DNA of 64,000 nt from contig NZ_AP022619.1 of the NCBI RefSeq assembly GCF_010731655.1, forward strand, positions 682,001 through 746,000, read 5' to 3'. A model generated the notes under the pieces. That model saw only the letters and a list, made by a program, of their open reading frames with translations. It was not told where the DNA came from and did not search any database. The translations under genes were made by a program, and so were the position numbers. Below, piece after piece: positions 34,336-37,703 of this stretch (position 1 is its first letter; each line of letters opens with the position of its first letter). This stretch comes from Mycobacterium paraseoulense (lineage in GTDB: Bacteria > Actinomycetota > Actinomycetes > Mycobacteriales > Mycobacteriaceae).

Positions 34336-34941
34336 TCAGGTGGGCCGGGCGGCCAGTTGGGCCAGTTGCGCGGCGACCTCGGCCGTTTGGGTGGTCAGCA
34401 CGATTCGGCCGGAAGTCACCGGTTCCTCGATGATCGGTGCCTCGAGAACGAGATTGTCGCGGACGAAGGCGACATGGTCCTTCAGGTGCGCCGCGGTGTA
34501 GGACGCCCACGCGGCCGCCGATGGCTGGTCCAGGATCAGGGTCACCTCGTAGAAACCCGCGGTCAGCGACTTCGGTGGGTCGACGTGTATCAGCCCGAGC
34601 TGCAGGGTCTCTGGAGCGAGCAGGTACGAGGTGATCCGGCCGATGTCGCATGCGGTGAGCGCATCAGTAGGCGCCACCCCGTGATTCGGATCGCTGGCCG
34701 GGCACTTCTGCGGGCTGGCCGGCTGCGATTTGTCGACCGGGCGGACGGGCAACGGCGCGATCTTCACGATGGGTGCAGCCGGCGCGGCCGATGGTGTCGT
34801 GGTGGGCGCCGCGTTGGTGGTTGTCGACGTGGTGGGTGCGGCCGGGTGCCGCGTCGGGTGGCACCCGCATGTCAGCGCCACGAGCAGGCCGACGCACGCG
34901 AGCCAAGCGCCGGCTTTGACATCCATTCGGCGTTGAACCAT
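34336..34941 (-). CDS. Putative lipoprotein with a SecDF-P1-head-like domain
   Basis: 201 residues from ATG 34941 (ATG 34926 is also possible). A hydrophobic N-terminus (WLACVGLLVALTCGC) ends in two Cys that roughly fit a lipobox, followed by a Thr/Pro/Ala-rich tether. The C-terminal half, from ACDIGRITSYLLAP to the end, matches the SecD/SecF periplasmic P1-head pattern: FYEVTLILD, a THR-like helix, then FVRDNLVLEAPIIEEPVTSG. The family is seen in exported actinobacterial proteins apart from true SecD. It is probably anchored outside the membrane. Function unknown. Confidence 0.72.
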   Translation of the reverse strand: MVQRRMDVKAGAWLACVGLLVALTCGCHPTRHPAAPTTSTTTNAAPTTTPSAAPAAPIVKIAPLPVRPVDKSQPASPQKCPASDPNHGVAPTDALTACDIGRITSYLLAPETLQLGLIHVDPPKSLTAGFYEVTLILDQPSAAAWASYTAAHLKDHVAFVRDNLVLEAPIIEEPVTSGRIVLTTQTAEVAAQLAQLAARPT

Positions 34942-35098
34942 TCGGTCATTGTTCCAGTCGTTGTCCGGCGGTCGGTTTCGCCCGCGCCGGCGCACACGCG
35001 CTTGGTGGCCACTCACGTCCGCCGTCCTGCGTCATCGCACCAAATCTCGCATCTCGATCCGGCCTGCATACGCGATTGTCGCGCGGCTGGCGCGTGGG

Positions 35099-35104
35099 TA
35101 GGCT
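35099..35104 (+). promoter_or_regulatory. -10 box for leaderless VOC protein mRNA
   Basis: TAGGCT ends seven bases before ATG 35112; the intervening bases are gcggcgg with no good ribosome binding site, supporting a leaderless transcript. Confidence 0.5.
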
Positions 35105-35111
35105 GCGGCGG

Positions 35112-35918
35112 ATGGGAGTCCGCACCGGGTACGCGGAGGGGACGTTCAGCTGGGTCGACCTCGCCACTTCCGACCCGGAGGCGGCCACAGTGTTCTATGG
35201 GACGCTCTTCGGCTGGACGCCGGACGAGCGGCGTATGTCGGACGGTCGCGCGTACACGGTGCTGCGCCGCGAGCAGCAGGATGTCGCTGGGCTCTATGCG
35301 CTCCATGCGACCGACCCCGGCGGCGGTGAGCCACGCTGGAACTCGCACGTATCGGTCGCCGACGTCGACGCGGCGGCCGCGCGCGCCCGCTCGTTGGGAG
35401 GCACCGTCTTAGCCGGGCCGCTGGATGTCGGAGACCGCGGGAGGTTGGTGGTCGTCCGCGATCCGCACGGGGCCGTTATCCATCTCTGCCAGCCCGGCCG
35501 GCACTTCGGCGCGACGTGCGTGAACGAGACCGGGTGCCTGACGTGGAATGAGCTCGCCACCCTGGATGTCGATGCCGCGATCGCCTTCTACTCGCGACTG
35601 TTCGGCTGGCGCATCGAGTTCCTCGCCGGCATGCCCGTGCCTTACTGGGTGATCCGCGTGGGAGCGCCCGCGGTGCCGGTGCTTTCCGGCGACAACGGCG
35701 GACTGCGCGGTCTGACGGCGGCGGACGCCGGCGTGCCGTCGCGCTGGCTGCCCTACTTCGTCGTGGCCGACGTCGCCGAGGCCGGGGCAGTCGCCATCGC
35801 CGGCGGCGGCGCGGTTCTCGCGGGGCCGACGGAGCAGCCGAAGGGTCGCTTCAGCTTCCTGCGCGACCCCCAGGGGGCGAGCTTCCTGGTCTTCGAAAGC
35901 AGCAAGCTCGACCCGTGA
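35112..35918 (+). CDS. VOC family protein with two glyoxalase-like domains
   Basis: 268 residues made of two tandem VOC repeats. Each has the start pattern (FSWVDLATSDPEAATVFYG; LTWNELATLDVDAAIAFYS), a second half with VADVDAAAARA or VADVAEAGAVA, and an end strand (VVRDPHGAVIHLCQP; FLRDPQGASFLVFE). This is the layout of hydroxylaconase CFP32-type proteins (M. tuberculosis Rv0577), which also have about 260 residues. Metal-binding residues are only partly kept, so catalysis is uncertain. It ends 16 bases before the unusual binding-protein gene. Confidence 0.85.
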   Translation: MGVRTGYAEGTFSWVDLATSDPEAATVFYGTLFGWTPDERRMSDGRAYTVLRREQQDVAGLYALHATDPGGGEPRWNSHVSVADVDAAAARARSLGGTVLAGPLDVGDRGRLVVVRDPHGAVIHLCQPGRHFGATCVNETGCLTWNELATLDVDAAIAFYSRLFGWRIEFLAGMPVPYWVIRVGAPAVPVLSGDNGGLRGLTAADAGVPSRWLPYFVVADVAEAGAVAIAGGGAVLAGPTEQPKGRFSFLRDPQGASFLVFESSKLDP

Positions 35919-35934
35919 AGGGGCGGAAGCGGAC

Positions 35935-36810
35935 GTGATCCTGGCCGAGACGTTGGTGTTCGGCTCGGGCCCCGAGTGTCCAACCGAATTGCTCTGTTTG
36001 CCGCTGTTGCGCGCGCGGTATGGGCTCACCTTCAAGAAGTTTCGTGTTACCGACGCTGGGGGGCCACGCACCGTCGAGGCGCTCGAAACGGGCGCGATTC
36101 AGGTTGGCGTGCTCTTCACGACCGATCCACGCCTTCTCGCCGGCGACTTCGTCCTGCTCGAGGATGACCGGCACGCCCAGCCCGCCGAGAGCGTGACGCC
36201 GATTCTGCGCGAAGAGTTAGGTGTCGCGCACGGCGCGCACCTCGCCGCGACCATCGATGCGGTGAGCGCGGAACTCACGACCGAGCGCCTCGCCGAGCTC
36301 AATCGTCGCGTCCTTCTCGGGTGGTCGCCCGCGGCGGCGGCGGCTGAATTCCTCACCGAGCGGCGGTGCAGCCCGACGCCCCGCGTATCGCGGAGAAACC
36401 GACCGGCGATTGTCGTCGGCTCGGCCAACTTCGCCGAGAGCGTGACCGTGGCCGAGCTTTACGCCCACGCGCTGGCGGACGCCGGCTTCCCGGTCGAGCG
36501 GCGCCTCGGGATCGGCAACCGCGACACGTACTTTCCGCTGCTCCGCGACGCCGCAGTGGGACTCGTCCCTGAGTACGTGGGTAGCCTGCTCGCGTATCTG
36601 GACGGGGGCCGGGGCGAGATCTCGGATGCGCGCCAAGCCCATGGGGTGCTCGCCCGGGCGCTGCAGGGAACGGGCCTCGTCGCGCTGCAGCCGGCGCCGG
36701 CCGAGAACAAAAACGGCATCGTCCTGACCGCCGCGACCGCGGCGCGCTACGGCCTGACCAGGATCAGTGATCTCGGCCGGGCGATCGGCGATGCGGACGG
36801 GAGCGGGTGA
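35935..36810 (+). CDS. OpuAC/ProX-type osmolyte-binding protein with halves in swapped order, no signal peptide
   Basis: 291 residues from GTG 35935. Residues 7-141 match the C-terminal half of glycine betaine/choline-binding proteins (SGPECPTELLCLPLL, DAGGPRTVEAL, QVGVLFTTDP, LLEDDRHAQPAE, then DAVSAELTTERLAELN, the usual C-terminus). A 15-residue basic linker follows. Residues 157-282 match the N-terminal half (VVGSANFAESVTVAELY, GNRDTYFPLL, GLVPEYVGSLLAYL, APAENKNGIVLT), stopping just before the point where the first segment would continue. Together they make about one complete fold in permuted order. No signal peptide, ABC permease or ATPase is nearby. It could be a true circular permutant with a cytosolic sensing role, or debris of two tandem genes. 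Confidence 0.75.
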   Translation: MILAETLVFGSGPECPTELLCLPLLRARYGLTFKKFRVTDAGGPRTVEALETGAIQVGVLFTTDPRLLAGDFVLLEDDRHAQPAESVTPILREELGVAHGAHLAATIDAVSAELTTERLAELNRRVLLGWSPAAAAAEFLTERRCSPTPRVSRRNRPAIVVGSANFAESVTVAELYAHALADAGFPVERRLGIGNRDTYFPLLRDAAVGLVPEYVGSLLAYLDGGRGEISDARQAHGVLARALQGTGLVALQPAPAENKNGIVLTAATAARYGLTRISDLGRAIGDADGSG

Positions 36811-37016: not shown

Positions 37017-37703
37017 ATGGACAGACGCCGAAAGCCTAATCCCGGGGAGCGCCGCCGCGACTTGTGCGACGCGGCGATTCAGTTGTTGGCCGACGACGGG
37101 GCCAAGGGCGTGAGCCATCTCAAGGTCGACCGCAAAGCCGGCGTGCCCGACGGGACGACGTCATTCTATTTCCGCACCCGCTCGGCGCTGCTGCGCGCGG
37201 TGGCCGAGCGGCTGGCCGAACTCGATCTCGCCGACCTGCAGTCCGTCGCCGACGACTCCGACGGCCGTGGGGCCAACCCCTCACCCTCGAGGCTGTCCCA
37301 GGTGGTCATCAGGTCCGGCAACGAGCCGCAGCTGTTCCGGACCAAGGCCCGCTACGAGCTGACCATGCAGGCCGCCCGCGATCCGTCGCTGGCCGCCATC
37401 CTGCAGCGGGCCACCGACGAGTTCACCAAGCTGCACCGCGAAATCCTGGTTGAACTCATGCCGCACGGCGCGGACCTCGACCCGGCCGTGGTCGAGGACC
37501 TGAGCAATGTGACGCTGACGTTCATCAACGGCCTGCTGGTTCGGTTCGCGCACGGCGACCGGGTCGTCGACAGTCCCGAACAGCTCGACGGGATCTTGTC
37601 CGCGATCGCCGCCGGCATTCTGCACAGCCCACGGCAGGGCCGGCTCACCGGCGCGGCCGGGCGGGGCCCTGCGGGCGGGAACCGAGCCACGGCGCTCGGA
37701 TGA
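37017..37703 (+). CDS. TetR family transcriptional regulator of the P450 operon (predicted)
   Basis: 228 residues. N-terminal TetR helix-turn-helix: RRRDLCDAAIQLLADDGAKG, then VDRKAGVPDGTTSFYFRTRS. The recognition helix is of the type found in regulators of lipid and sterol genes. The ligand domain has helices around RYELTMQAARDPSLAAIL. GAAGGG lies just before ATG 37017. It is followed on the same strand by the P450 operon after 196 bases, and a shared 15-base element before both suggests that it controls itself and that operon. The C-terminal tail is Gly/Arg-rich and probably disordered. Confidence 0.87.
   Translation: MDRRRKPNPGERRRDLCDAAIQLLADDGAKGVSHLKVDRKAGVPDGTTSFYFRTRSALLRAVAERLAELDLADLQSVADDSDGRGANPSPSRLSQVVIRSGNEPQLFRTKARYELTMQAARDPSLAAILQRATDEFTKLHREILVELMPHGADLDPAVVEDLSNVTLTFINGLLVRFAHGDRVVDSPEQLDGILSAIAAGILHSPRQGRLTGAAGRGPAGGNRATALG

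What the first reader, a model, noticed from the sequence alone, without database searches (positions are those of the whole stretch)
35935..36810. Osmolyte-binding protein fold in circularly permuted order and without export signal
The first half (7-141) reads as the C-terminal part of an OpuAC/ProX protein through to its natural end; the second half (157-282) reads as the natural N-terminal part and stops where the first would continue. The two make roughly one complete fold with a short new linker. No signal peptide and no transporter genes are nearby. A cytosolic, permuted binding protein would be new for this family and might act as a sensor. The alternative is a relic of two tandem genes.
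Basis: partly seen in the sequence, partly recalled or inferred. Interest (0 to 1): 0.75.

Follow-up and report, generated by a model that had tools for sequence, protein, structure and literature searches.

The report
Permuted binding protein without export signal
A mycobacterial gene encodes an osmolyte-transporter-type binding protein whose two halves are joined in swapped order and which has lost its export signal; its relatives show that the swap is real, kept by selection and has happened more than once.

Summary
The 291-aa ORF (35935-36810) is an OpuAC/ProX-type binding protein in the order C-half, linker, N-half, without signal peptide or adjacent transporter genes. It is no relic: five mycobacterial chromosomal copies are intact, both halves are under purifying selection, and AlphaFold2 gives one compact fold (pLDDT 85). 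The same order occurs in 8 of 151 genomes of the Chromohalobacter family (with signal peptide) and in 16 other actinobacterial loci, 12 of them complete ATPase-permease-permease-binding-protein operons; 14 of 14 readable 5' ends have lipoprotein signals. So the permuted form serves transporters elsewhere. New here: among close relatives the order has switched repeatedly (supported branches force at least 5 changes), mostly at one loop and once at another; and mycobacteria carry a leaderless form in a 1.7-kb two-gene cassette with a VOC-fold gene, at four different sites in six copies. The betaine cage is mostly replaced by polar or acidic residues, so the ligand is probably not glycine betaine. 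Cytosolic sensing or sequestration is inferred.

The parts
35935..36810 (+). circularly permuted OpuAC/ProX-type binding protein, 291 aa, GTG start, no signal peptide
35950..36363 (+). half homologous to the C-terminal half of canonical ProX/OsmF proteins (residues 6-143)
   Evidence: mean dN/dS (NG86, 10 pairs) 0.181
36364..36402 (+). new linker joining the natural C- and N-termini (residues 144-156)
   Evidence: mean dN/dS 2.34 over 13 codons, range 0.34-7.8, so unconstrained within noise; pLDDT dips to 65-73 in blocks 141-160
36403..36783 (+). half homologous to the N-terminal half of canonical ProX/OsmF proteins (residues 157-283)
   Evidence: mean dN/dS 0.283
35919..35934 (+). 16-nt spacer between VOC stop and GTG start with a purine-rich GGAAGC/GGAGCC motif; 14, 15, 15, 15, 16 and 17 nt in the six mycobacterial copies, so not held in frame
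   Evidence: spacers counted by eye
35076..35918 (+). VOC-fold (double glyoxalase domain) partner gene, likely real start ATG 35112; Rv0577/KbpA-like; upstream in 6 of 6 mycobacterial copies and present at 1e-70 in exactly the same 4 of 297 genomes
37017..37703 (+). TetR/BetI-like regulator downstream; conserved beside the pair only in the syntenic L035, so probably not part of the module

Best explanation
Shown: the ORF is a genuine, selected, circularly permuted binding protein of the ProX/OsmF-like branch of PF04069. It has the chain order of B. subtilis OpuAC. Relatives with this order in other actinobacteria carry lipoprotein signals and, where the contig allows, are the last gene of an Opu-type ABC importer operon, so the permuted order serves ordinary binding-protein work there (operon position shown, transport inferred). 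The window's own clade (mycobacteria plus Chromohalobacter) has no adjacent transporter genes, and the mycobacterial branch also lacks the signal peptide and is joined to a VOC-fold gene in a 1.7-kb cassette found at different genomic sites. Inferred: permutation arose by in-frame duplication followed by loss of the first N-half and last C-half; the mycobacterial protein folds in the cytosol, closes on a small, probably cationic or zwitterionic ligand other than glycine betaine, and works with the VOC protein as a ligand sensor or sequestering/detoxifying pair.
Against: Function of the mycobacterial form is not tested. The gene is rare (4 of 297 genomes), and the plasmid copy is frameshifted, so it is dispensable in places. 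dN/dS is higher than for the neighbours TetR (0.107) and CYP (0.028) in the window-L035 pair. Non-classical export cannot be excluded. Nothing shows physical contact with the VOC protein. Three of the five AF2 models had lower confidence (66.0, 64.3, 52.3).
Confidence: 0.72

Rival explanations
1. Relic of two tandem binding-protein genes: a chance in-frame remnant without function.
For: A C-half followed by an N-half is what a decayed tandem pair would leave; the M. ulcerans plasmid copy is frameshifted; the gene is patchy.
Against: Five intact chromosomal copies, the four others 85-86% identical to the window, with dN/dS 0.2-0.4; Chromohalobacter orthologue with the same ends at 48% identity; operon-encoded lipoprotein relatives.
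Confidence: 0.03
2. The protein still serves an ABC importer: it leaves the cell by an unrecognised route and feeds a transporter encoded elsewhere, for example the own canonical operon at G000 3.83 Mb.
For: Relatives are transporter binding proteins by operon position; the genome has one canonical OpuAC-type operon with ATPase and two permeases.
Against: No signal-like stretch upstream of the domain in the five intact mycobacterial copies; that operon has its own binding protein; constant VOC partner with a short spacer.
Confidence: 0.12
3. The permuted order with the window's break arose once, and half-wise gene conversion with canonical paralogues makes it look repeated.
For: The break lies in the same few residues in all 28 copies; the N-half of L059 groups with L099 (100/92) but its C-half does not.
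Against: Holding all permuted rows in one clade is rejected for the binding protein (p-AU 1.8e-5; 1.5e-4; 2.3e-72) and for the partner ATPase plus permeases (p-AU 5.6e-5). The four Actinomycetes copies sit inside the canonical actinomycete clade and lack the cysteine pair. One further lipoprotein, L094/L137, is permuted at a different loop, so at least one more event is needed anyway.
Confidence: 0.2
4. Cytosolic glycine betaine, choline or carnitine sensor.
For: Family membership; the downstream regulator is weakly BetI-like.
Against: By alignment, of the four A. fulgidus ProX cage tyrosines one is kept (Y63 to Y214), one is Phe (Y190 to F61) and two have no aromatic counterpart (Y111 to N260, Y214 to E85); F107 is Ala; carboxylate-binding R149 is Glu in 13 of 13 mycobacterial and Chromohalobacter rows (pocket residues from passages). 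The regulator is beside the pair only in the syntenic L035.
Confidence: 0.12

Closest known systems
B. subtilis OpuAC (2B4L, 2B4M, 3CHG, 5NXX)
   Different: Sequence kin are OsmF/ProX-type proteins, not 2B4L: no hit at E<=1 with the single sequence, E 0.063 with profile A2. No lipoprotein signal and no transporter genes here.
OsmF/ProX-type binding proteins (5teu, 1sw1, 4wep; NCBIfam GlyBetbindOsmF NF049931)
   Same: Closest by sequence: 5teu E 2.2e-15; A2 profile to 1sw1 E 1.2e-39.
   Different: Halves swapped, betaine cage mostly replaced, leaderless; NCBIfam score 65 against cut-off 400.
Circularly permuted TpMglB-2 (Tp0684) of Treponema pallidum
   Same: Natural circular permutation of an ABC binding protein, a lipoprotein that still binds its ligand (PMC4990184, passages).
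   Different: Type I sugar-binding fold, other break point, exported.
Rv0577 (3OXH) and KbpA-type VOC proteins
   Same: The partner gene matches 3oxh E 1.9e-47 and NCBIfam KbpA 112 bits.
   Different: Below the KbpA cut-off of 250; the calls made did not look for a known link of that family to binding proteins.

Membership tests
PF04069 OpuAC domain family | profile score above curated cut-off | tested here: met
   117.2 bits against 21.2, in two stretches in swapped order
PF04069 OpuAC domain family | bilobed type II binding-protein fold | tested here: met
ProX/OsmF quaternary-amine-binding proteins | aromatic cage of A. fulgidus ProX (Y63, Y111, Y190, Y214, plus F107) and R149 | tested here: not met
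   By HMMER alignment the window has Y214, N260, F61, E85, A256 and E18 there; residue counts in 5 groups
ProX/OsmF quaternary-amine-binding proteins | canonical N-to-C order | tested here: not met
ABC importer binding protein | signal peptide or lipoprotein signal | tested here: not met
   absent in the window and in the four other intact mycobacterial copies; present in relatives; judged by eye, no signal-peptide program
ABC importer binding protein | co-encoded ATPase and permeases | tested here: not met
   no tblastn hit beside the six mycobacterial and two Chromohalobacter copies examined; present in full in 12 of 16 other actinobacterial loci
B. subtilis OpuAC-type permuted binding proteins | same chain order and ends | tested here: met
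   model 2-282 to chain 9-272
B. subtilis OpuAC-type permuted binding proteins | clear sequence relationship to OpuA-type OpuAC | tested here: not met
   no hit at E<=1; profile E 0.063
B. subtilis OpuAC-type permuted binding proteins | glycine betaine or proline betaine binding | not testable with these tools
   needs a binding assay
VOC/Rv0577-like (partner gene) | double glyoxalase-type domain, sequence match to 3oxh | tested here: met

The most novel reading that the evidence does not exclude
Binding proteins of this ABC importer family are natural, repeated circular permutants. Within homologous operons the order of the two halves has switched several times independently, mostly at one favoured loop and at least once at another, with B. 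subtilis OpuAC as a further case. One permuted lineage has left transport altogether and travels among mycobacteria as a leaderless 1.7-kb two-gene cassette with a VOC-fold protein, a cytosolic ligand-sensing or sequestering pair of a kind not described before.
Probability: 0.4. Interest if true: 0.8.

Novelty: new variant of a known kind. Interest (0 to 1): 0.6.

Why it matters
Circular permutation is usually a rare, deep event. A family in which homologous operons carry the binding protein in either order gives a natural series for asking how permutation arises, why one loop is favoured and whether the order affects docking to the permease. The mycobacterial pair offers a ready cytosolic binding domain separated from transport. 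A PF04069 match or product name does not by itself show the order, so permuted members can hide under the name of glycine betaine binding proteins, as the plasmid copy does.

Tried and rejected
The viral collection gave no relative; one phage record gave only a two-piece match at 33.5%. Of 279 plasmid records with a match only the M. ulcerans one reached 80% identity; I did not check the order of the halves in the others. A search of 349 Pseudomonadota genomes found only the Chromohalobacter copy used as centre. Within the class of G407, 6 of 24 genomes have the permuted gene, all six already in the phylum sample. Relic of tandem genes: rejected by intact orthologues and dN/dS. Assembly artefact: rejected, because many independent assemblies agree, single-contig ones included. 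Single clade of all permuted proteins: rejected by AU tests, although long branches, reassortment of binding proteins between operons and half-wise gene conversion remain caveats. VOC dN/dS: the four pairs with L036 gave values above 1.8 because my slice was out of frame there, so I dropped them; the other six are 0.20-0.30 by NG86.

Rows dropped before tree counts: L094, L100-L103 and L105 (no match to the half profiles for the last five); also L104, L004, 18 near-duplicate mycobacterial canonical rows and 5 near-duplicate Chromohalobacter rows; L068 (cut by contig) and L071 (frameshifted) were in no tree. In one search my half test mislabelled L094 as canonical with a short C-half; the check shows it is permuted at another loop. 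The other 75 of 76 labels held. This find made me lower the single-origin rival from 0.25 to 0.2 and raise the novel case from 0.35 to 0.4. VIA-align lists only Foldseek's own best 1000 chains, so other permuted structures may be missed. I did not measure whether the AF2 model places C15 and C21 within disulfide distance.

Literature: nine searches over open PMC papers; apart from PMC2395249 I saw no paper in those listings on permutation in this family; listings were capped and subscription papers are mostly not held. Seen: PMC2395249 section 11 and passages; PMC4990184, PMC2861598, PMC10087775 and PMC9732360 passages only.

Full report
1. The observation. The ORF at 35935-36810 (+) encodes 291 residues from a GTG. 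Pfam OpuAC (PF04069) matches in two stretches. Mapped on the genome, profile positions 141-257 come first and 2-113 second. Against the solved protein 5teu, residues 9-140 match its C-terminal half and 160-285 its N-terminal half, leaving about 6 loop residues between the new ends. The two halves therefore make one whole domain. The open frame holds no start codon upstream of the GTG, and the upstream reading overlaps the VOC gene, so there is no hidden signal peptide. In L070 other GTG codons lie 6 and 64 codons upstream, but the reading there has no signal-like stretch. The L061 Opu-type permeases have no hit in the window at 1e-8.

3. Relatives. Full-length permuted matches occur in 4 of 297 sampled Mycobacterium genomes, the own one included, in Mycobacterium sp. 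4858, and at 48% identity in Chromohalobacter. Of 151 genomes sampled around Chromohalobacter at family level 8 have it. A sample of 346 Actinomycetota genomes gave 12 more outside Mycobacterium (one, G359/L068, is cut by the contig end), and a sample of 345 genomes of the window's own class gave 4 more. Of 349 Pseudomonadota genomes only the Chromohalobacter centre matched at 1e-45. Profiles of the two halves confirm the order in 28 of 28 copies with both halves readable (24, 4). All 28 have the same break: the chain ends just after the helix ending SDLA-like and starts just before the strand LVLGG-like.

4. A second break point. In the phylum sample the hit in G496 covers profile 68-283 in one piece. 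On re-inspection this lipoprotein (L094) runs C-half positions 62-142, then the N-half, then C-half positions 3-64. It is a circular permutant cut at a different loop, encoded after two permeases with a divergent ATPase gene before them. It was in none of the trees.

5. What the relatives do. Of the 16 other actinobacterial copies with the window's break, 14 have a readable 5' end and 14 of these begin with a lipoprotein-type signal, judged by eye (L065 and L068 are cut off). In 8 of the first 12 loci a proV-like ATPase and two permeases precede the permuted gene; two more show permeases up to the contig edge and two are cut off. In the four class-level loci the same three genes precede it in 4 of 4 (the ATPase hit in L135 covers residues 95-362). 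The L061 ATPase passes the proV cut-off (349.6 against 326.6) and carries a CBS match; its two permeases match BPD_transp_1. Of 19 regions fetched around canonical-order relatives, 10 have the same ATPase-permease-permease-binding-protein layout and 7 show no ABC genes nearby. Chromohalobacter copies have a Sec-type signal peptide by eye but no ABC-gene hit within about 9 kb in the locus tested.

6. Evolution. In a 75-row tree (24 permuted, 51 canonical) the permuted rows are not one clade (p-AU 1.8e-5). In a 54-row tree with the four extra copies (23 permuted, 31 canonical), well-supported branches force at least 5 changes of order. The tree of the partner ATPase and permeases (9 permuted, 14 canonical operons), which the permutation itself cannot bias, also rejects one clade (p-AU 5.6e-5). 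Two clear cases: L059 sits among canonical operons of its own family in the transporter tree, and the four Actinomycetes copies sit inside the canonical actinomycete clade. Half trees alone are weaker: starred branches force 4 changes for the N-half and 2 for the C-half. A single origin followed by half-wise gene conversion is the main alternative for the 28 copies, because their break is always in the same few residues. Mycobacterial and Chromohalobacter copies form one clade (100/98).

7. Selection. Over 10 pairs of five mycobacterial copies dN/dS is 0.215-0.412 (NG86) or 0.122-0.230 (YN00). By part (NG86 means): C-half 0.181, N-half 0.283, linker 2.34 over only 13 codons. For the window-L035 pair the gene (0.240) is less constrained than TetR (0.107) or CYP (0.028). 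The copy on M. ulcerans BS123 plasmid NZ_CP083743 is split between two frames near residues 40-43.

8. The mycobacterial cassette. A VOC-fold gene lies directly upstream in 6 of 6 mycobacterial copies, with a 14-17 nt spacer and a GTG start each time. At E<=1e-70 the VOC gene occurs in exactly the same 4 of 297 genomes. Comparison of the flanks shows four different sites for six copies: window with L035, L069 with the plasmid L071, L036 alone and L070 alone. Between sites the shared DNA is only the pair, about 1.7-1.8 kb at 84-88% identity. The VOC protein resembles Rv0577 (3oxh, E 1.9e-47) and, below cut-off, KbpA, named in NCBIfam as an AfsK-binding protein. Joint function is inferred from this linkage.

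9. Ligand. Mapping A. fulgidus ProX pocket residues (passages) by alignment: Y63 is kept as Y214; Y190 is F61; Y111 is N260, Y214 is E85, F107 is A256 and R149 is E18. E18 is Glu in 13 of 13 mycobacterial and Chromohalobacter rows; at that position the 11 other permuted rows of the table have Arg in 8, and the 18 non-mycobacterial canonical rows have Arg in 18. Two cysteines, C15 and C21, are invariant in 42 of 42 rows of this subfamily (24 permuted, 18 canonical) and absent in 27 of 27 mycobacterial canonical rows. I infer a cationic or zwitterionic ligand other than glycine betaine; this rests on sequence alignment, not on a structure with ligand.

10. Verdict. The feature is real and, by selection and conservation, functional. 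Permutation in the wider betaine-binding family was known; its recurrence among close relatives and operons, and the leaderless VOC-linked mycobacterial form, were not seen in the papers searched. It is filed as a new variant of a known kind.

Noticed in passing
L094 / L137 7418-8281 (G496:C1 4919420-4920280): A lipoprotein-type relative circularly permuted at a different loop (C-half late part, N-half, C-half early part), downstream of two permeases with a divergent ATPase gene.
   Followed up: partly
window 34336-35016 (-): Divergent ORF upstream of the VOC gene with a hydrophobic N-terminus and a SecD/SecDF P1-head match (below cut-off); 77% identical in L035, less than the other neighbours compared.
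   Followed up: no
L071 11874-12747 (NZ_CP083743.1, M. ulcerans BS123 plasmid): Plasmid copy of the VOC-permuted pair, near PE/PPE and integrase genes; permuted gene frameshifted and annotated with a later start as glycine betaine binding protein. The region is about 96% identical to the chromosome-size contig L069, whose copy is intact.
   Followed up: partly
window residues C15 and C21 of the permuted protein: Cysteine pair invariant in 42 of 42 rows of this subfamily, in exported and leaderless forms alike; a disulfide in the exported forms would not be expected in the cytosol.
   Followed up: partly
L133-L136: Permuted binding proteins of a second subfamily (EFKTR/EFQTR motif, no cysteine pair) in complete ABC operons in the window's own class: a further, apparently separate permutation.
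   Followed up: yes
L004 / L107 (G000:C1:2652002-2652757): A third, very divergent OpuAC-domain protein in the own genome with a long branch; an ABC ATPase hit lies at the edge of the fetched region.
   Followed up: no
L037 7081-8061 and repeats to 8878: YhgA-like transposase_31 gene with repeated copies and masked bases just downstream of the Chromohalobacter permuted gene.
   Followed up: no
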